Made by a program: the position numbers and the translations under genes. The notes beneath the pieces are model-generated. The model was not told where the DNA came from, searched no databases, and saw nothing but the letters and a program-made list of their open reading frames with translations. Shown here one piece after another: positions 11,105-23,050 of a stretch of 23,826 bases of DNA; positions within the stretch are counted from its first letter, which is position 1, and every line of letters begins with the position of its first letter. Source of the stretch: a virus; IMG/VR virus record IMGVR_UViG_3300025112_000193, positions 1 to 23,826 of that record; one strand, written 5' to 3'.

Positions 11105-11674
11105 ATGGCATTTTGGTCAGACCGAACAACAGAGCCGAAAAGGGCTTATAGATGGGTTTTATATATGGGGGGAATCCCTCAGTGGATATGTAAGAAGGTT
11201 TCAAAGCCGAGTTTCACAATTTCTGAAACGGAACATACTTATTTAAATCATAAGTTCTGGTATCCCGGTCGCGTAGAATGGAACACTGTTTCTGTGACGC
11301 TAGCGGATCCTGTTAGCCCTGATGCCGCCGAAACCATGATGGCAGTTATTGATGCCTCTGGCTATAAACTTCCTTCAGACCCGAATCAAATTCAATCTAT
11401 GTCTAAGAAGAAGGCGATTGATGCCCTTGGTCGTGTTGCGATTCAGCAGATTGGACCTGAAGGCAAAGAGATTGAAGAGTGGGTGCTTGTTAATCCGTGG
11501 GTTAAAGATGTTAAATTTGGAGAGCTTGATTATACGTCAGACGACATGGTTGATATTGAACTTGAGATTCGTTATGACTATGCTATCTTGAATAAGATTG
11601 AGGATGGCAAATACAAGAATGCCGCCGCGATGGGTGCAGTGGGTGACTCTGACGCCATCGGGAATGTTGGGTAA
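11105..11674 (+). CDS. Tail tube protein, gp19-like
   Basis: 189 residues (T4 gp19 is 163). 'MAFWSDRTTEPKRAYRWVLYMGG' followed by 'VSKPSFTISETEHTYLNHKFWYPGRVEWN' and 'VNPWVKDVKFGELDYTSDDMVDIELEIRYDYA' is the usual tube-protein pattern: a small beta barrel that stacks as hexamers. It follows the sheath, as 19 follows 18 in T4. Role: the inner tube through which DNA passes. No unusual features apart from a slightly long Ala/Gly-rich C-terminal tail. Confidence 0.88.
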   Translation: MAFWSDRTTEPKRAYRWVLYMGGIPQWICKKVSKPSFTISETEHTYLNHKFWYPGRVEWNTVSVTLADPVSPDAAETMMAVIDASGYKLPSDPNQIQSMSKKKAIDALGRVAIQQIGPEGKEIEEWVLVNPWVKDVKFGELDYTSDDMVDIELEIRYDYAILNKIEDGKYKNAAAMGAVGDSDAIGNVG

Positions 11675-11730: not shown

Positions 11731-11755
11731 ACTTTTTGCTTTAACGAGGTGATTG

Positions 11756-12667
11756 ATGGCAAATAGAAACAATGAGGACCGCACAGGCGAACGTCGTGCG
11801 GCGGGCGCTAACGCCCCTCCTCAAACGATATCTCCTATGATACCGTCTAGTGAAACAACTGGGCCAGCAGGCAGGCCACTTGATTTTACTTGCCCGACAG
11901 AATTCGTAGACATCCCCTCCAAAGGGCGGTTTTATCCAAAAGACCACCCACTTCATAATAAGGATAGTCTTGAAATTCGTTTTATGACTGCGAAGGATGA
12001 AGACATCCTTACGTCAAAATCTTTACTGAAGAAGGGTGTCGCTATTGACAGGTTTTTGCAGAATATTATTGTTGATAAGAGTATTGAACTTTCATCCCTT
12101 ATCGTGGGCGACAAGAATGCGATTGTTGTTGCCTCTCGTATCACTGGTTATGGTGCAGATTACGGCACGAAGGTAACATGTCCCGCTTGCGGTGCATCTC
12201 AAGACTATTCATTTGATTTAGAATTGGGCAAGGTTAGTGAGGGCGGGACCGAAGGATTAAAAGACAATCCTGAAATGGCGGCTGCTGTTGATTCAACTGA
12301 TAACAATACGTGGGTTATTGATTGTCCCAAAAGCAAGGCAATAGTTGAAATGAAACTTCTAACTGGGGTTGATGAGAAACATATGCTCAAATCTCAGGCT
12401 ATGAAAAAGAAGAATAAACTTCCTGAAGCGCTTCTCACTGATCAGTTGCGACAAACAATTGTATCGGTCAATGGGGATTCTAGTAAACTTAATATTAATA
12501 GGTTTATTGATGTTATGCCTGCGTTAGATTCACGATATGTGCGTAGCATTTATGAAAAGCTAATGCCGAATGTTGATTTGACTCAGGAATTTGAATGCCA
12601 CTCTTGCGGCTTTGAGCAAGAGATGGAGGTGCCTTTTACTACGGACTTTTTTTGGCCTAAGCAATAA
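11756..12667 (+). CDS. gp26-family baseplate hub assembly protein / tail assembly chaperone (zero-frame product)
   Basis: 303 residues. The segment 'FVDIPSKGRFYPKDHPLHNKDSLEIRFMTAKDEDILTSKSLLKKGVAIDRFLQNII' (about 51-106) is typical of the T4 base-plate protein family (PF12322, T4 gp26). Two CxxC pairs, C142/C145 (CPAC) and C281/C284 (CHSC), probably bind one zinc ion. Family role: an assembly factor for the hub, not a part of the finished tail. ATG 11756 is preferred over the adjacent TTG 11753; ACGAGGTG (11744-11751) serves as ribosome site. Near the 3' end the frame crosses seven T's at 12647-12653, where ribosomes could shift into the next frame (see next entries); without a shift the protein ends in ...DFFWPKQ. 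Confidence 0.7.
   Translation: MANRNNEDRTGERRAAGANAPPQTISPMIPSSETTGPAGRPLDFTCPTEFVDIPSKGRFYPKDHPLHNKDSLEIRFMTAKDEDILTSKSLLKKGVAIDRFLQNIIVDKSIELSSLIVGDKNAIVVASRITGYGADYGTKVTCPACGASQDYSFDLELGKVSEGGTEGLKDNPEMAAAVDSTDNNTWVIDCPKSKAIVEMKLLTGVDEKHMLKSQAMKKKNKLPEALLTDQLRQTIVSVNGDSSKLNINRFIDVMPALDSRYVRSIYEKLMPNVDLTQEFECHSCGFEQEMEVPFTTDFFWPKQ
12647..12653 (+). other. Putative programmed ribosomal frameshift site (T7, +1 or -2)
   Basis: The zero frame reads GAC TTT TTT TGG CCT AAG CAA TAA. A +1 slip on the T run gives GAC TTT TTT (T) GGC CTA AGC, which enters an open frame extending to 12890. tRNA-Phe can re-pair perfectly. An SD-like GGAGGT at 12625-12630 lies 16 nt upstream. The site is 15-18 nt before the zero-frame stop. 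Confidence 0.5.
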
Positions 12668-12890
12668 TTATATCGAATCTGTTTACGAGCAGTTTTTTCT
12701 TCTTAAGTATCATGGCGGGTGGAGTTTCATTGAGGCTTATAACTTGCCGGTGAAAATCCGAAATTGGTTTGTGGACCGTCTCGCGAGACAATTTGAAGAA
12801 GAGAAGCAAGAGATGGAGAAGGCAAAGGCAAACTCAAAGTCTAAATCGGGCGGTTCAAGACCAAGTATGCCTTCCGGTCGTAAGCGATAA
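12654..12890 (+). CDS. Frameshift-encoded C-terminal extension of the gp26-family protein
   Basis: 78 residues in the +1 frame beginning 'GLSNNYIESVYEQFFLLKYH'. The body 'WSFIEAYNLPVKIRNWFVDRL' is a compact helical unit like the small proteins encoded beside gp26 in other T4-type phages (from memory), and it ends in a charged helix and a Ser/Gly/Arg tail. No start codon with a usable ribosome site exists for it: the only upstream starts in frame are TTGs at 12591 (AGGA only 2 nt before) and 12612, both deep in the gp26-family gene where this frame gives implausible protein. The simplest reading is a fusion of about 377 residues made by slippage at 12647-12653, as in the tail assembly chaperones found before tape-measure genes of many phages. 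Confidence 0.6.
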   Translation, partial: GLSNNYIESVYEQFFLLKYHGGWSFIEAYNLPVKIRNWFVDRLARQFEEEKQEMEKAKANSKSKSGGSRPSMPSGRKR

Positions 12891-12908: not shown

Positions 12909-12938
12909 AAAGGGGTTCCATTCGTGGAGCCCTTTTTT
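12909..12938 (+). terminator. Intrinsic terminator after the gp26-family gene
   Basis: Stem 12913-12920 with 12925-12932 (GGGTTCCA / TGGAGCCC, one G-U pair), TTCG tetraloop, extended by A-T pairs into TTTTTT at 12933-12938. It lies 19 nt after the stop of the shifted frame, which supports that frame being a real gene end. Confidence 0.9.
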
Positions 12939-12991: not shown

Positions 12992-13333
12992 ATGGATAAC
13001 AACGAACAAGGGGACTTGACCCCGATTGTCATTGACTTGGATGCCTTAAAAAGTGGTAAGATAGATGAGTTTAATGTATTGCAGCAGATGGGTAGCGCCG
13101 TTAAATTAATTATGCGTCAGATGTTTGGTGGCTCGGCAATCCCTGTATCAGTGAGGGGAAGTCGCAGCGATGTTAAGTCTTTTGCCAAAACAGTCGGTAG
13201 AGAAAAGAGATATATGAGCGCATATAAAAAGTTTGGCTTGAACGACCCGCGAACCTATAAGAGCAAGTTTAAATTAAATAAGTCTGTACGCGACTTTGAA
13301 CGCAAAACCAAATTAAAGTGGCCTTTTAAATAA
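12992..13333 (+). CDS. Small conserved T4-type phage protein of unknown function
   Basis: 113 residues, basic. The C-terminal half 'KKFGLNDPRTYKSKFKLNKSVRDFERKTKLKWPFK' follows a pattern I recall from short proteins of many T4-like phages ('YGLxDPRTYKNKxxLxxAxxxFExxTGxxWPF'), whose role I cannot name. The N-terminal half is acidic. It lies between a terminator/promoter pair and the tape measure, so it should be made late and at the same time as the tape measure; a chaperone or hub part is possible. The ribosome site AAGGAG and the start overlap a 2-codon ATG-AGC-TGA whose stop shares one base with the ATG. Confidence 0.6.
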   Translation: MDNNEQGDLTPIVIDLDALKSGKIDEFNVLQQMGSAVKLIMRQMFGGSAIPVSVRGSRSDVKSFAKTVGREKRYMSAYKKFGLNDPRTYKSKFKLNKSVRDFERKTKLKWPFK

Positions 13334-13353: not shown

Positions 13354-16300
13354 ATGGCTGATAATGGATTCCGCACCCCAGCAGAAATAGAAGCTGAAAT
13401 CGCTGCCGAAAATAAGCGTTTGGATCTTCTTGGTGAACTTACCAATGAAGCTGAACGCACTTATGCCATAGAGCAGAAGCGAGCTGATTTGGCTAGAGAG
13501 CAGCGGGAACATATTGCATATGTTAAAGCCAACTTTCACGAATTAAATGACATAAAACAAAAAGAAATCTTCTATGCGGAAGAGGCGTTAAAAAAGGCTA
13601 AAGCGAATACAGATATCACTCGCGCTCAACTGGCCGAATTGAAAGAGGGCCTTGAAGTTCTCTATGAACAACAAGACGCCCTTTTTGAAGTAAACAGCAA
13701 CGCTGAAACGCTACTTGGGACTTATAGCAAGATTGAAGAGGAGGCAGGAAAAGCTGCTGATGAGCTTAGAGAAGCTGTAGAATCAGCAGCGGGCTTGGGT
13801 GAGGCTGTTAAGGATGCTGCGTCTGCCTTAACTGGCATAGGCCCCATGTGGCGAAAGAGCGCGATGGGCGCATTTGTTTCAGCTGGTCAGACAAAGGGCT
13901 GGGCAGCTGCCATGTCCGAGGTAGGTGAGAACCTAGCTAAAACCCTCTCACCAATGAATATAGCTGGGTCACTTATGGCTGGTGTTGTTCAGCAAACCAT
14001 GTTTATGGTCGGAGCAATTGACAGCGCTCGCTCTGGTTTTAATAAGGCTACGGGAGCTGGTGGCGCATATAATGACGTTCTTATGGAGGGTTATGAATCT
14101 AACCGGCAGCTTGGCGTTGATATCGGAGAAATGAGTGAAGCCATTCAAGGCTTAATGGGGAGTATGGCTGGCTTTGGTCAGATGGGTAAAGCAGCCAAGA
14201 AAGAATATGCAGGGATGGCAGCTGTACTGCAAGAGGTTGGCGTTAACGCAGGAACTTCCGGTGAGTTATTTTCAAATGCTTCAAAGATAATGGGCAAGAA
14301 CGCTCAGCAAACTAAGGCATTAGTGGGCGAGTTTAAAGGCTTGGCGAAAACACTAGGGACATCACTTGGTCCGTTGATGGATGAGTTTAATGCGTCAATG
14401 AGCGACTTAGCTGTGTATGGTGATCAGGCACCAGAAATATTTAAACGCTTGAAAGGTGCGTCAGAGGCACTCGGGATTTCAGTTGGCAGTCTGGTCGGTA
14501 CAATGAAGGAACTTGATACCATTGAGGGTGCAGCTGCACGCGCCGGTCAATTAAACGCAGCGCTGCAAGGCCAATTTTTAGACACTAATGAATTATTAAA
14601 TGCCAGTGTTGAAGATCGTATTATACTGACTCGCAAAGCTCTAGAAGACTCTGGAAAAGAATGGAAGTCAATGGGCCGCGCAGAAAGACAAATGGTTGCA
14701 AATGCTGCTGGCTTTTCTGATATGGCTGAAGCGGCCAAATTTATGAGTAAATCTACTGCTGAGTTGGAGCAGGCGATGAACAAGGCTGGTAAGGCATCAA
14801 GTAGCTGGCTTGAAGTCAGAGATTCAGCAGCGGCAGCACAATCAGTGAAAGATAAGCTAGCTGCTACGATGGCGAACTTGGCTGTTCTTGCAGAGCCGCT
14901 TGTGGAATTGTTACATCTGCTTGCCGAGGGTCTGGCATATGTTATAGGCAGGCCGTTTGGCAAGTGGGCTACGATAGCTGCGGCAGGGATGTATCTGATT
15001 GGCTCTGGGGCGCTGACAGCAGCAGGGGCTATGGCTGGGGCATTCTTCTCTGCCATCTGGGCTGGTATATCTGCGATTGGTGTGCTTATCTTAAAGATGG
15101 GTATCTGGATCGCATCGAAAATAGTGAACCTCGGTTGGACGTGGGCACAAATTTCCGCAATGTTTGTACAAGAAAAGGCGACAAAGGGAGTTACCGAGGC
15201 CATTGAAGACCAGGCAGACGCCCAGAAAGAGGTGTCCAGCACGGGCAGTGGTTTTATTAGTTTTCTTAAAGCGCTTCTTGAAGTTGCTAACGATAACTGG
15301 AAGGGGCTACTTGCCCTTGGCGCAGCCTTTTTGATGGTTGGTATTGGGGTGGGCCTTGCCGCTTTTGGTTTAAGCTTTTTTGTGAAGGCGTTTGCCGGTA
15401 TGTCGCCTGCACAAATTTTGGCTATCTCTGTGGCTTTGGCTGTATTTGGTGCCACGATGGTCACGATGGCTTGGGTTTTGGCGGCAGCTGCGCCTGGTTT
15501 GACGGCAGCTGCGTGGGGGCTATTGGCTTTCGGCGCGGCGATGATGATGATGGGACTTGCGATGATATTGGCAGCAGGCGGGTTTGCGATATTTATAGCT
15601 GCGTTACTAACGTTAGTTCCTCACATACCTTCCCTTTTCCTGGCTGCTCTCAGTTTGGGGTCACTTGCACTAGCGGGGATGCTTATGCTGCCTAGCGGGA
15701 TTATGGCTATGATTGGATTGTTCATGCTTGCCGTTGGGTTGGGCGCGTTGGCTATATCTTTGGCGCTCATTAAGACAGATGATTTGCAAGCGCTTGGCGT
15801 GATGATGATGGGGCTAAGCATGATCGACTTAGCAGCGTTAAGGCACGCACCAGCGGCGGTCGAAGATTTACTGGACGCACTTGAAGACGCCAACGAAACA
15901 TTGGCTGGCGCTTTGATAACGTTTTCTATATTAGGGTCAGCGTTTATGTCTTTTGGGTTGGGCGCTCTTATGGCTTCAATATTTTTGCAGCTGCTCGTTT
16001 CTCCACTAGCTAGCTTGGCTGAGCATGGTCCCGTTGCAGCAACGGCATTGGCTGCAATTGCCAGTGCGGGTACGATGTTCGTTCCAATTGTTGGGGTATT
16101 TGCAACGGTGGGCGCGTCCCTTATCACCCTGGGGTATGGAGCTTTTCTAGCTACAGCATTTTTGCAGCTGCTTATTCCTCCACTGTTTGCAGTTGGTCTG
16201 GGAGTTATAATATTGACCTTTGCTATAACAGCATTGAACGCAACGTTGCCAATATTCTTTTCTTTCTTGCCCCAGTGGTGGGAGATATTATTCATATTTA

Positions 16301-16974
16301 CGGCGCTAGTCCCACTGATTGTAATGTTAACCGGTGCTATTTTGATTATGGCGATGTTTGGTATGCTTGCTGCGGTTGGTTTATGGTGGATTTCTTGGGG
16401 TTTGTTAAGCGTTGGTCACGCGCTATGGGCTCTGCCGCTGTTCACGCTAGTTGCCTTTGCTGGTTTTCTTGGAGAAATCAATTCATTGACAGACACTATG
16501 ATTAGTAGAATAGGTGACTTGGCGTTGGTAATTTATGATATGGCCGACGCCCTTTGGTGGCTCAGTATGTGGAGGGTCGTGAGGTTTACAATGTTGCTGC
16601 ATGAAATAGGGTATGCTGGTAAGCACGCAGCTAAGATAACACCAGCTGTGGTGAGTAATGTTGAAACTTTGGTGGGCACTGCTAAAGAATATGGCCGCAT
16701 CAAGTGGGACGTCCTTGGTAGCGGCAAAGGCCCCGATATGAATCCATTTGTTGAGATGCTTAAGGCCGCTTCTAAAGTTAATTTCGGAGGTGGTGCCAAC
16801 GGTGGCAAAGGCAAAGGTGGCGCTGGTGGCGCTGGGGGCGAGGGTGGCGCTGCCGCTGGTGCCGGTGCTGGTGGCCCCACGACCATTATTCTTGAGCTTG
16901 ACGGCAAAGAATTGGGTCGGACGGTAGAAGCCCTTTTAAGCAAGCGCAATAATTTGAGGACTGTTACCACATAA
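13354..16974 (+). CDS. Tail tape measure protein
   Basis: 1206 residues, the longest gene here. N-terminal ~110 residues are a charged coiled coil; residues ~110-530 are helical and Ala/Gly/Met-rich; about 538-1045 is a long array of hydrophobic, membrane-like helices (for example 'LLALGAAFLMVGIGVGLAAFG' split by short charged links); about 1144-1174 is a Gly/Ala linker followed by 'TTIILELDGKELGRTVEALL', a common tape-measure ending. Family role: sets tail length and is ejected ahead of the DNA, when hydrophobic parts may enter the host inner membrane. It is twice the length of T4 gp29 (590). The ribosome site is weak (GGAA 13340-13343; AAGGA is 17 nt away), so it may depend on ribosomes arriving from the gene 20 nt upstream. 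Confidence 0.88.
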   Translation: MADNGFRTPAEIEAEIAAENKRLDLLGELTNEAERTYAIEQKRADLAREQREHIAYVKANFHELNDIKQKEIFYAEEALKKAKANTDITRAQLAELKEGLEVLYEQQDALFEVNSNAETLLGTYSKIEEEAGKAADELREAVESAAGLGEAVKDAASALTGIGPMWRKSAMGAFVSAGQTKGWAAAMSEVGENLAKTLSPMNIAGSLMAGVVQQTMFMVGAIDSARSGFNKATGAGGAYNDVLMEGYESNRQLGVDIGEMSEAIQGLMGSMAGFGQMGKAAKKEYAGMAAVLQEVGVNAGTSGELFSNASKIMGKNAQQTKALVGEFKGLAKTLGTSLGPLMDEFNASMSDLAVYGDQAPEIFKRLKGASEALGISVGSLVGTMKELDTIEGAAARAGQLNAALQGQFLDTNELLNASVEDRIILTRKALEDSGKEWKSMGRAERQMVANAAGFSDMAEAAKFMSKSTAELEQAMNKAGKASSSWLEVRDSAAAAQSVKDKLAATMANLAVLAEPLVELLHLLAEGLAYVIGRPFGKWATIAAAGMYLIGSGALTAAGAMAGAFFSAIWAGISAIGVLILKMGIWIASKIVNLGWTWAQISAMFVQEKATKGVTEAIEDQADAQKEVSSTGSGFISFLKALLEVANDNWKGLLALGAAFLMVGIGVGLAAFGLSFFVKAFAGMSPAQILAISVALAVFGATMVTMAWVLAAAAPGLTAAAWGLLAFGAAMMMMGLAMILAAGGFAIFIAALLTLVPHIPSLFLAALSLGSLALAGMLMLPSGIMAMIGLFMLAVGLGALAISLALIKTDDLQALGVMMMGLSMIDLAALRHAPAAVEDLLDALEDANETLAGALITFSILGSAFMSFGLGALMASIFLQLLVSPLASLAEHGPVAATALAAIASAGTMFVPIVGVFATVGASLITLGYGAFLATAFLQLLIPPLFAVGLGVIILTFAITALNATLPIFFSFLPQWWEILFIFTALVPLIVMLTGAILIMAMFGMLAAVGLWWISWGLLSVGHALWALPLFTLVAFAGFLGEINSLTDTMISRIGDLALVIYDMADALWWLSMWRVVRFTMLLHEIGYAGKHAAKITPAVVSNVETLVGTAKEYGRIKWDVLGSGKGPDMNPFVEMLKAASKVNFGGGANGGKGKGGAGGAGGEGGAAAGAGAGGPTTIILELDGKELGRTVEALLSKRNNLRTVTT

Positions 16975-20672: not shown

Positions 20673-21869
20673 ATGGCAGCACCTTTTGATACAGTTACCC
20701 CCATTACAGTCGCGCTTGGGAATAACAAGTTAGGGCCGACAGCTTCGTATATGTTTCGGAAGTATTGGAAGGAAGATGGCATGCCAACTGTCGCAGCAGT
20801 TGACCCTGAACCGATTGATTTTTGGTATGGAAAACTTTTTCATGGGAGAATAGACGGAAGTGGGGTAGTGGTGTACCCGTCTGAAACCAATCTTAAACAA
20901 ATACCATCTAACGACAAGCGTACTTACTGGGCTTTTGATTTTGTTGTGGACGCTTTTTCGGGCCTTCAGTCACATTATAAGAAAGCAGCGTTTAAAGGCT
21001 TGATAACGCCAGAAAGTAATATCACTCAGATAATGCCTAAACGTGCGTGGGTGAGCATTCATCAAAATTATAATGTATATATGGAGAATTTGTACAACCA
21101 TCTTGTTACCTTCTGGTTTCAAAAAGAGCAGCGCAACTCAAAAATTAAAAACTTTTCGGAGTTCTTACACGAATTTATGGAGTTGGTTCAATTCGAAGGT
21201 GGCGCACTACCATTCACCAAGAGCGCATACATTCTTTCAAGGTACTTCTCTCCTCTATCAAGTGGTTTTATTATAGAGATTGCAGAGGACGATCACTCTT
21301 TGGATGAAAATAAAGAAAAGAACTGGACAGAAGACCCAAACTTTTCTTTTTATAGAAATTCAGCTGCGAACTTTGGATTCATTATTGACAAGAACGCTCC
21401 ATGGAGATTGGTAGCGGATATCAATAGTCCCATTATGGCGCAATATATGAAACCATATGGCCTCGTCGGTGGAGCTAATGATTTATTTGAAACATACTAT
21501 TATCAAAGTCATCTTTTTGACATTGAAAATCTGAAGCGTTATCTTTTAGAGATGTATAATGCTTATGTGTTGGCCTATCCTCAAGCGAAAATCTTTAGAA
21601 CGAAGCTGAAGGGCGCGGGCGGCATTCAGACTGTGAGCAAGTTGATTAATCGCAGACCAATCAGCATTGAGGATGTGAATCGGCAATTTAGCCCTGCATT
21701 TTGGCTAAAAACTTATTATTATATAAGGTTGCGAGAGCTGGGTGTTCCCCGCGACCCTGTTAAATTTAATAAAGAATTAAAAAAGATCCTTCAGGAGTAT
21801 AAATTGCTTGACTTTGAACGGGCTTTGAGTTATATTAATGATAACATCCGTCGTTTAAAGGTTCGTTAG
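20673..21869 (+). CDS. Conserved phage protein of unknown function, probably structural
   Basis: 398 residues, start ATG 20673 after TAGGAG (20659-20664). Visible features: Trp- and Tyr-rich sequence, 'DFWYGKLFHGRIDGSGVVVYP' near residue 50, a helical middle ('FSEFLHEFMELVQFEGGALP'), 'FGFIIDKNAPWRLVADINSPIM' at about 235-256, and a helical C-terminus ('DFERALSYINDNIRRLKVR'). 'DKNAPWRLVADxxSP' is familiar to me from unassigned proteins of marine myoviruses. No catalytic motif, signal peptide or membrane segment. Its stop TAG shares its last base with the GTG of the polymerase gene, so the two are translationally coupled. Confidence 0.55.
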   Translation: MAAPFDTVTPITVALGNNKLGPTASYMFRKYWKEDGMPTVAAVDPEPIDFWYGKLFHGRIDGSGVVVYPSETNLKQIPSNDKRTYWAFDFVVDAFSGLQSHYKKAAFKGLITPESNITQIMPKRAWVSIHQNYNVYMENLYNHLVTFWFQKEQRNSKIKNFSEFLHEFMELVQFEGGALPFTKSAYILSRYFSPLSSGFIIEIAEDDHSLDENKEKNWTEDPNFSFYRNSAANFGFIIDKNAPWRLVADINSPIMAQYMKPYGLVGGANDLFETYYYQSHLFDIENLKRYLLEMYNAYVLAYPQAKIFRTKLKGAGGIQTVSKLINRRPISIEDVNRQFSPAFWLKTYYYIRLRELGVPRDPVKFNKELKKILQEYKLLDFERALSYINDNIRRLKVR

Positions 21870-23050
21870 TGTTATTTCAGCCAATTGATGAAAAAAGATT
21901 TATAGGTATATACGTTCACGGAATGATTCATCGCGATATCCTTCCCGCTGGCCTAAAAGCCACATGGCGACCATGCCCCTTTCTTTCTGATGAGTATGTA
22001 TATGCAAGCTTATACTGTGGTGGCAAGTCTTTAAGCGAAGTGTGCCCAGAATATTTGCTTCCGAGGTGGGAACAGACAAGCGGTCGCCTTAAAGCTCATT
22101 TAACGGCATGCCACACGGCGCAAGTAAATTTACAGGAGATTCCTTTTCTTGATTTAATACCAGAGGAGTTGCTTTTGGAGTTTTGTGAAATTAAAAATCA
22201 AATCACTGAGCATGTTTTATTAAATTATCCGAGACCCGAAAATTATGATTTTCTTCTTGACCTTGAGAGGACTTTGGAAAATATACGCAACCATAAAATT
22301 AATTTAAATCTTGGTGTTCTCCAACCATATTTAACAACTGTTCATGCGCGGTCATCATATAAAAAATTAAAGAGGTCGCGAAGGGTTGTTGATTATGATG
22401 CGTTTAAAGTAAAGACTGGGCGCTTGACAACAAAGAAGGGTAGTTTTCCGATTCTAACCTTGAGTAAGCCGTTTCGTCGGGCCATTGAGCCCAACAACGA
22501 TTATTTTGTAGAACTAGATTACAATGCCGCCGAGCTTCGGACTTTGCTAGCACTATCTGGGAAAGAGCAGCCCTGTGATGACATTCATGAGTGGAACGCT
22601 AAGCATGTTTACCCAGGATTGGCAACAAGAGAAGAGGCGAAGAAGAGAATTTTTGCTTGGTTATATAACCCCGAGTCAAAAGACCAGCTCTCTAGTCGCA
22701 CTTATGATAGAAGCTCGGTGGTTAAAAAATATTATGACGGGAGTCAGGTGGAAACCTTTTTTTCCAGAACAATACCGTCAGACGATCATCACGCATTAAA
22801 TTATATTATTCAGAGTACAACAAGCGATTTGTTCTTAAGAAGGGCGATAGAAGTTGGTAAAATACTACAAGGAAAGGAATCTTATATTGCGTTTACCTTA
22901 CATGACTCATTGGTTATTGATTATGCTAAAGAGGATAAGGATTTGATTAAGCAACTGTATGACACATTTAAAGATACTGATTTAGGACAATTCGTGGTGA
23001 ATGTTTCCACGGGTAAGAACTTTGGTGAGATGACGAAGTTGGAGCTATGA
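21869..23050 (+). CDS. Minimal family A DNA polymerase (polymerase domain only)
   Basis: 393 residues, from GTG 21869 (AAAGGT 21857-21862). Family A palm and finger motifs are present in order: 'TGRLTT' (183-188, cf. TGRLSS), motif A 'LDYNAAELR' (216-224; catalytic D217, E222), motif B 'REEAKKRIFAWLY' (254-266; R254, K258, F262, Y266 exactly RxxxKxxxFxxxY), 'NYIIQSTTSD' (311-320; Gln 315) and motif C 'LHDS' (344-347; catalytic D346). The usual HDE is HDS, and Tyr266 is followed by Asn not Gly. There is no 3'-5' or 5'-3' exonuclease domain, and only ~180 residues precede TGR, so the thumb is small. Function inferred: template-directed DNA synthesis, perhaps specialised, since T4-type phages normally use a family B enzyme. 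It overlaps the MazG-like gene by ATGA. Confidence 0.8.
   Translation: MLFQPIDEKRFIGIYVHGMIHRDILPAGLKATWRPCPFLSDEYVYASLYCGGKSLSEVCPEYLLPRWEQTSGRLKAHLTACHTAQVNLQEIPFLDLIPEELLLEFCEIKNQITEHVLLNYPRPENYDFLLDLERTLENIRNHKINLNLGVLQPYLTTVHARSSYKKLKRSRRVVDYDAFKVKTGRLTTKKGSFPILTLSKPFRRAIEPNNDYFVELDYNAAELRTLLALSGKEQPCDDIHEWNAKHVYPGLATREEAKKRIFAWLYNPESKDQLSSRTYDRSSVVKKYYDGSQVETFFSRTIPSDDHHALNYIIQSTTSDLFLRRAIEVGKILQGKESYIAFTLHDSLVIDYAKEDKDLIKQLYDTFKDTDLGQFVVNVSTGKNFGEMTKLEL

What the first reader, a model, noticed from the sequence alone, without database searches (positions are those of the whole stretch)
12600..12890. Programmed +1 (or -2) frameshift in a gp26-family gene before the tape measure
The gp26-family frame and the next open frame meet at seven T's (12647-12653). 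A +1 slip joins ...DFF to GLSNNYIESVYEQ... and yields a fusion of about 377 residues. The second frame has no usable start codon, reads as good protein only downstream of the T run, and its stop is followed 19 nt later by a strong terminator. Overlapping frames by slippage just before the tape measure are the rule for tail assembly chaperones in lambda-, P2- and Mu-type phages. A T4-superfamily case would suggest that gp26/gp51-type assembly factors are the T4 equivalents.
Basis: partly seen in the sequence, partly recalled or inferred. Interest (0 to 1): 0.8.

Follow-up and report, generated by a model that had tools for sequence, protein, structure and literature searches.

The report
Plus-one ribosome slip in tail chaperone
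In a large group of marine and freshwater T4-like viruses of bacteria, the gene for the helper protein that assembles the tail appears to make a second, longer protein when ribosomes slip forward by one base at a fixed U-rich site; this is a forward version of a trick that related phages do backward.

Summary
ORF1 (11756-12667, PF12322, the gp26 family) and the next frame meet at TTT TTT TGG (12647-12655). ORF2 lies in the +1 frame. All 160 IMG/VR and phage loci I could score keep this arrangement, as do cultured Microcystis, Flavobacterium and Rhodothermus phages. ORF2 similarity starts exactly after the site, and dN/dS is 0.08 in the +1 frame against about 1.6 in the other two. Sites such as TTC TTT TGG and TTT CTT TGG rule out slippage on a T7 run, and the first also rules out -2. 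The shared rule is P-site YUU followed by U, that is, +1.

Other T4-like lineages (cyanophages, jumbo phages, RAS14) encode a homologous C-domain in the -1 frame at U UUU UUY. In the +1 set the base before the Phe-Phe pair is almost never T (1 of 127); in the -1 set it always is (14 of 14). T4 itself has two PF12322 genes, 26 and 51. Best explanation: a tail assembly chaperone (TAC-N and TAC-NC) made by +1 frameshifting.

TACs in T4-like phages were published in 2022 (Vladimirov et al.; text not held). What looks new is the +1 direction and the -1/+1 switch. No expression data exist.

The parts
11756..12667 (+). ORF1, short product (TAC-N), 303 aa, gp26 family; TTG at 11753 is an alternative start
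   Evidence: PF12322 E 7.9e-14, phrog_150 baseplate hub E 1.9e-14; AlphaFold2 pLDDT 89.7
12647..12655 (+). Slip site TTT TTT TGG: P-site UUU 12650-12652, A-site UGG 12653-12655
   Evidence: YTT then T in 127 of 127 distinct junctions
12644..12646 (+). GAC codon before the Phe pair; codons ending in T are avoided here, which would disfavour -1 slipping
   Evidence: GAC 60: GAT 1 against a background of 783: 1863
12654..12890 (+). ORF2 as used after a +1 slip (TAC-C, 78 aa, GLSNNYIESVYEQ...); the whole open frame is 12582-12890
   Evidence: dN/dS 0.08 in this frame; three helices, pLDDT 87.1
12625..12631 (+). Shine-Dalgarno-like GGAGGTG inside ORF1, about 19 nt before the P-site codon; role unsure
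   Evidence: SD-like pairing exceeds synonymous shuffles in the family; not present in all relatives
12909..12936 (+). Intrinsic-terminator-like hairpin after ORF2
11105..11674 (+). Tail tube protein (gp19-like), immediately upstream
   Evidence: phrog_4542 E 1.7e-22
13354..16974 (+). Putative tape measure protein, 1206 aa, downstream
   Evidence: weak similarity to the annotated tape measure of Flavobacterium phage immuto, E 2e-4; position and size

Best explanation
11756-12890 is one gene with two products: a tail assembly chaperone of the T4 superfamily. Most ribosomes should read ORF1 to its own stop and make the 303-aa short chaperone (TAC-N). A minority should pause with peptidyl-tRNA-Phe on UUU and UGG waiting in the A site, slip forward by one base (UUU_U to UUU), and read on in the +1 frame. 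That makes a 377-aa long chaperone (TAC-NC) with a 78-aa helical C-domain. By analogy with lambda G/GT, the N part would coat the tape measure and the C-domain would recruit tube subunits. Shown here: the frames, the site, its conservation, coding selection on ORF2, and homology to gp26/gp51 and to the -1 frameshift versions. Inferred: that slippage happens in cells, its efficiency, and the chaperone role.
For: Frame arrangement in 80 of 80 nearest relatives, 78 of 78 scorable loci from a second seed and 11 MAG contigs. 127 distinct junctions: second codon TTT 124, CTT 3, TTC 0, always followed by T, while a nearby conserved Phe uses TTC 13 of 55. ORF2 dN/dS 0.08 against 1.6-1.7 in other frames. 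Same +1 arrangement in cultured phages Mel-JY01, immuto and RM378, and in SP-15, LIS04 and GXN1 with other Phe-Phe sites. ORF2 is homologous to the C-domain in the -1 frame of other T4-like phages (hhalign Prob 96.4; eight column-shuffled controls at 7.3 or less), and that one to the T4 gp51 tail (Prob 75). T4 gp26 and gp51 are both PF12322. The codon before the Phe pair avoids T in the +1 set and is always T-ended in the -1 set. The top PDB fold match to ORF1 is the HK97 tail assembly chaperone, but it is not significant (E 1.9).
Against: No peptide, ribosome-profiling or reporter data. No downstream RNA structure beyond background. The upstream SD-like element lies too far away for the prfB type of stimulation and is not universal. 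UGG is a sense codon, so what makes the ribosome pause is unproven. The direct hhalign between ORF2 and the T4 gp51 tail is null; the link runs through the -1 group. The tape measure assignment is weak by sequence.
Confidence: 0.88

Rival explanations
1. The join is a -2 ribosomal slip, as in phage Mu, giving DFFFGLSNN.
For: Frame arithmetic is the same, and T7 allows it in most members, including the window.
Against: At TTC TTT TGG (L022, L042, L074) and TTC TTT CGT (GXN1, L167) a -2 slip would put UUU on UCU; at AAC TTT CTA (L083) on ACU. +1 re-pairs in all of these.
Confidence: 0.04
2. RNA polymerase slips on the T7 run, making a mixed mRNA population, rather than the ribosome slipping.
For: T7 is present in most members.
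Against: Members with the run broken (TTCTTTTGG, TTTCTTTGG, TTTCTA) keep the same frames and C-domain. The bias against T just before the run would not be expected, since a longer run would help polymerase slippage.
Confidence: 0.04
3. ORF2 is a separate gene translated from its own start, by re-initiation after ORF1.
For: Some relatives have an ATG, GTG or TTG in the ORF2 frame near the join (44 of 127 within 30 nt). Bacterial injection-system versions often show ATGA/GTGA start-stop overlaps.
Against: 33 of 127 have no common start codon before the upstream stop, and the window has only a TTG 63 nt upstream. The slip site is conserved at synonymous positions, which re-initiation does not explain.
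Confidence: 0.03
4. Sequencing or assembly indel in a homopolymer; really one unbroken gene.
For: Homopolymer at the join.
Against: Same state in 160 independent contigs and several cultured isolates, including sites without a homopolymer.
Confidence: 0.01

Closest known systems
T4-like phage tail assembly chaperones (Vladimirov, Gautam and Davidson 2022, Virology 566:9-15; text not held, known through PMC10274946 and PMC12846349)
   Same: gp26/gp51-family gene, short and long chaperone, poly-T join, location in the tail module.
   Different: As cited, the T4-like slip is -1 and poly-T. Here it is +1 at YUU_U with a sense codon in the A site. I could not read the paper to see whether any +1 group is in it.
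-1 versions in cyanophages, 121Q, RaK2, XacN1, RAS14 and others (read here)
   Same: Homologous N protein and homologous C-domain; Phe-Phe pair at the join.
   Different: U UUU UUY with T before it and shift -1, against non-T before it and U after it and shift +1.
T4 genes 26 and 51
   Same: Both PF12322; gp51 has a C-terminal extension related to the -1 C-domains.
   Different: Two separate genes and no frameshift.
Phage lambda G/GT chaperone
   Same: Short and long forms by slippage, just before the tape measure.
   Different: -1 slip at another site type (PMC5009743; GGGAAAG from memory); no sequence relation was tested or seen.
Influenza PA-X and bacterial prfB +1 sites
   Same: P-site UUU or CUU slipping +1 (UUU_C; CUU_U). 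Streptococcus phage GXN1 has UUU_CGU, the PA-X tetramer and A-site codon.
   Different: [quoted passage not shown] PA-X is eukaryotic with a rare Arg codon.

Membership tests
Tail assembly chaperone, frameshifted type (TAC-N/TAC-NC) | Two overlapping frames, the second without its own conserved start, joined at a conserved slip site | tested here: met
Tail assembly chaperone, frameshifted type (TAC-N/TAC-NC) | Gene between tail tube and tape measure | tested here: met
   tube gp19-like 11105-11674, large ORF at 13354; same order in immuto, where it is annotated as tape measure
Tail assembly chaperone, frameshifted type (TAC-N/TAC-NC) | Second frame under protein-coding selection | tested here: met
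   dN/dS 0.08 in the +1 frame against 1.6-1.7 in the others
Tail assembly chaperone, frameshifted type (TAC-N/TAC-NC) | Both products made, long form in the minority | not testable with these tools
   needs proteomics or ribosome profiling
Tail assembly chaperone, frameshifted type (TAC-N/TAC-NC) | Binds the tape measure and tube; absent from the mature virion | not testable with these tools
   needs biochemistry
PF12322 / T4 gp26-gp51 family | Profile match over the curated cut-off | tested here: met
   52.3 bits against a cut-off of 24.5; T4 gp26 and gp51 match the same model
T4 26/51 two-gene arrangement | Short and long forms from separate genes | tested here: not met
   one PF12322 match in the window's record, which is a 23.8-kb fragment
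-1 frameshifted T4-like chaperones | C-domain in the -1 frame at U UUU UUY | tested here: not met
   frame is +1; base before the Phe pair is C
prfB-type +1 site | CUU or UUU slip codon followed by U | tested here: met
   127 of 127 junctions
[quoted passage not shown]
   A-site UGG (UAC in two); SD-like element about 19 nt upstream and not universal
DUF6760 (PF20546) | ORF2 matches over the curated cut-off | tested here: inconclusive
   17.2 bits against 27 for the window; 48 of 79 relatives match at E up to 0.1, best 1.7e-5

The most novel reading that the evidence does not exclude
Within one homologous chaperone family the direction of the programmed frameshift has switched between -1 (U UUU UUY) and +1 (YUU_U). 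The sign may be set by only the bases flanking a Phe-Phe codon pair: T before gives -1, non-T before and U after gives +1. A whole branch of environmental T4-superfamily phages uses a +1 class without a stop codon, a close SD or a downstream RNA structure.
Probability: 0.65. Interest if true: 0.68.

Novelty: new variant of a known kind. Interest (0 to 1): 0.58.

Why it matters
TACs were long missing from T4-like phages, and in most annotations seen here the long form is unlabelled: ORF2 is a stray 'hypothetical protein' or is missed. This gives a rule for finding it, a +1 site class that seems to work without the usual known stimulators, and a natural set of related genes in which frameshift direction can be tested by changing one or two bases. 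The C-domain also links to DUF6760 of bacterial contractile injection systems, which suggests that those machines carry tail assembly chaperones too.

Tried and rejected
Downstream RNA structure as stimulator: mean z -0.67 against -0.51 to -0.57 in control regions. Rfam: nothing. PDB sequence search: no relatives. PDB fold search: nothing significant; the HK97 chaperone was top for ORF1 at E 1.9. Genome scan with SP-15 as query: no relatives. First tree held one misframed row (L083) and was rebuilt. Rejected readings: -2 slip, transcriptional slippage, separate gene, sequencing indel (see rivals).

Full report
Observation. In the window, ORF1 (11756-12667) reads ...ACG GAC TTT TTT TGG CCT AAG CAA TAA, with seven T's at 12647-12653. 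The next open frame (12582-12890) is +1 to ORF1. ORF1 matches PF12322 (T4_baseplate; 52.3 bits, cut-off 24.5) and phrog_150 (baseplate hub). A 12-pair hairpin with a T tail follows the ORF2 stop (12909-12936). The window is a 23.8-kb virus record with a T4-type head and tail module: major head protein, sheath, tube.

Conservation. 80 relatives were fetched from IMG/VR. In all 80 plus the window, ORF2 is in the +1 frame and its similarity begins at the first residue after the join. A second seed, the cultured Microcystis phage Mel-JY01, brought 80 more; the 78 whose ORF1 ends inside the locus show the same, and so do 11 MAG contigs. Across 127 distinct junctions the site is TTT TTT TGG in 116, TTT CTT TGG in 3, CTT TTT TGG in 3, TTC TTT TGG in 3 and TTT TTT TAC in 2. 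The P-site codon is thus always YTT and always followed by T. Background Phe usage in the same genes is 27% TTC, and a conserved Phe a few codons upstream uses TTC in 13 of 55. ORF2 evolves as a protein: over 18 pairs median dN/dS is 0.08 in the +1 frame and 1.6-1.7 in the other frames, with substitutions by codon position 125, 74 and 397.

Direction. TTC TTT TGG allows perfect +1 re-pairing (UUU to UUU) but -2 would place UUU on UCU. GXN1 (TTC TTT CGT) and the jumbo phage LR756508 (AAC TTT CTA) also allow +1 (UUU to UUC) and not -2. CTT sites alone do not separate the two directions. Broken T runs also exclude polymerase slippage as the shared mechanism. Precedents for P-site slippage on UUU_C are in PMC3498833, and +1 in phage genes is known (PMC5009743).

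Wider family. Cultured phages with the +1 arrangement are Mel-JY01, Flavobacterium phage immuto, Rhodothermus phage RM378 (TTT TTT TGG), Bacillus SP-15, Listeria LIS04 and Streptococcus GXN1. The other lineages examined use -1: Escherichia 121Q, Klebsiella RaK2, Vibrio 2.275, Pseudomonas Callisto, Xanthomonas XacN1, Stenotrophomonas RAS14, Agrobacterium Atu_ph07, cyanophages S-SM1 and P-SSM5, C48C1, Vibrio VmeM-32, Rhizobium LG08, Cronobacter S13 and LR756511. All 14 have T TTT TTY. The +1 and -1 C-domains are homologous (hhalign Prob 96.4, E 1e-9; eight column-shuffled controls at 7.3 or less). The -1 profile also matches the C-terminal tail of T4 gp51 (Prob 75), although the +1 profile does not match it directly. 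T4 gp26 and gp51 both belong to PF12322. On a protein tree the +1 rows cluster with one -1 row near their base. That implies one or two changes of direction, but deep branches are weak and several rows are long.

A flank rule. In the +1 set the base just before the Phe-Phe pair is T in 1 of 127 and C in 97. The one T is in a TTC TTT site (L074), where -1 is blocked anyway. Asp there is GAC 60, GAT 1, against 783 and 1863 elsewhere in ORF1; Asn, Ser, Gly and Thr show the same avoidance of T-ended codons. In the -1 set this base is T in 14 of 14. Sequences are related, so the nominal p (8e-31) is not a true probability, but the pattern spans many clades and five amino acids. The simplest reading is selection against -1 slipping on the same poly-U.

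Stimulators. Nothing beyond background downstream. Upstream SD-like pairing is stronger than in synonymous shuffles (mean minimum -7.7 against -5.0 kcal/mol), but it is spread over several positions, about 19 nt from the P site in the window, and missing in some members, so its role is open. UGG or UAC in the A site may be slow.

Structure and role. AlphaFold2 gives confident models for ORF1 (pLDDT 89.7) and ORF2 (87.1, three helices). Nothing in the PDB is significant; the top hit for ORF1 is 2ob9, the HK97 tail assembly chaperone, E 1.9. BFVD hits are gp26-type proteins including SP-15 (E 2.9e-17). With position between tube and tape measure this supports the chaperone role, which remains inferred.

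What is known. Vladimirov, Gautam and Davidson 2022 identified TAC genes in T4-like phages and proposed separate short and long genes for some. I could not read it. PRFect summarises the two-gene solution, and the phage Adele paper cites it for polyT -1 signals in T4-like TAC genes. From memory, its abstract names genes 26 and 51 and says that frameshifting is conserved in several T4-like groups. The +1 direction, this site class and the flank rule were not found in anything I could read.

Noticed in passing
L198 668-1668; L201-L211, L218, L221, L225 (bacterial genomes): Bacterial contractile injection loci have (L198) sheath, gp19 tube, a ~120-aa protein, then DUF6760 in the -1 frame. The ~120-aa protein matches the C-terminal half of phage ORF1 (hhalign Prob 91; shuffled controls 0.3 or less). 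The join is GGGGGAA in about a dozen loci and an ATGA/GTGA-type overlap in others. DUF6760 may be the chaperone C-domain of these machines.
   Followed up: partly
L186 (CP070664.1, candidate division WOR-3 chromosome): A 2.85-Mb bacterial MAG chromosome holds one +1-type chaperone locus nearly identical in layout to the phage ones: prophage or misassembly.
   Followed up: no
L082 6701-6943 and L081 6734-6970: In deposited genomes the C-domain is mis-annotated: as a short hypothetical fragment in immuto, and as a separate hypothetical gene started upstream in the +1 frame in Mel-JY01.
   Followed up: yes
L169 3998-4877 (Rhodothermus phage RM378): The thermophile phage RM378 has the same TTT TTT TGG join, but its chaperone gene is not followed by a tape measure: a tail tube gene on the other strand comes next.
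   Followed up: no
window 12992-13333: 113-aa ORF between the terminator and the tape measure with no Pfam or PHROGs match.
   Followed up: no
window 21869-23050: DNA polymerase-like fragment (phrog_17, E 2.2e-16) of only 393 aa, directly behind the tail genes.
   Followed up: no
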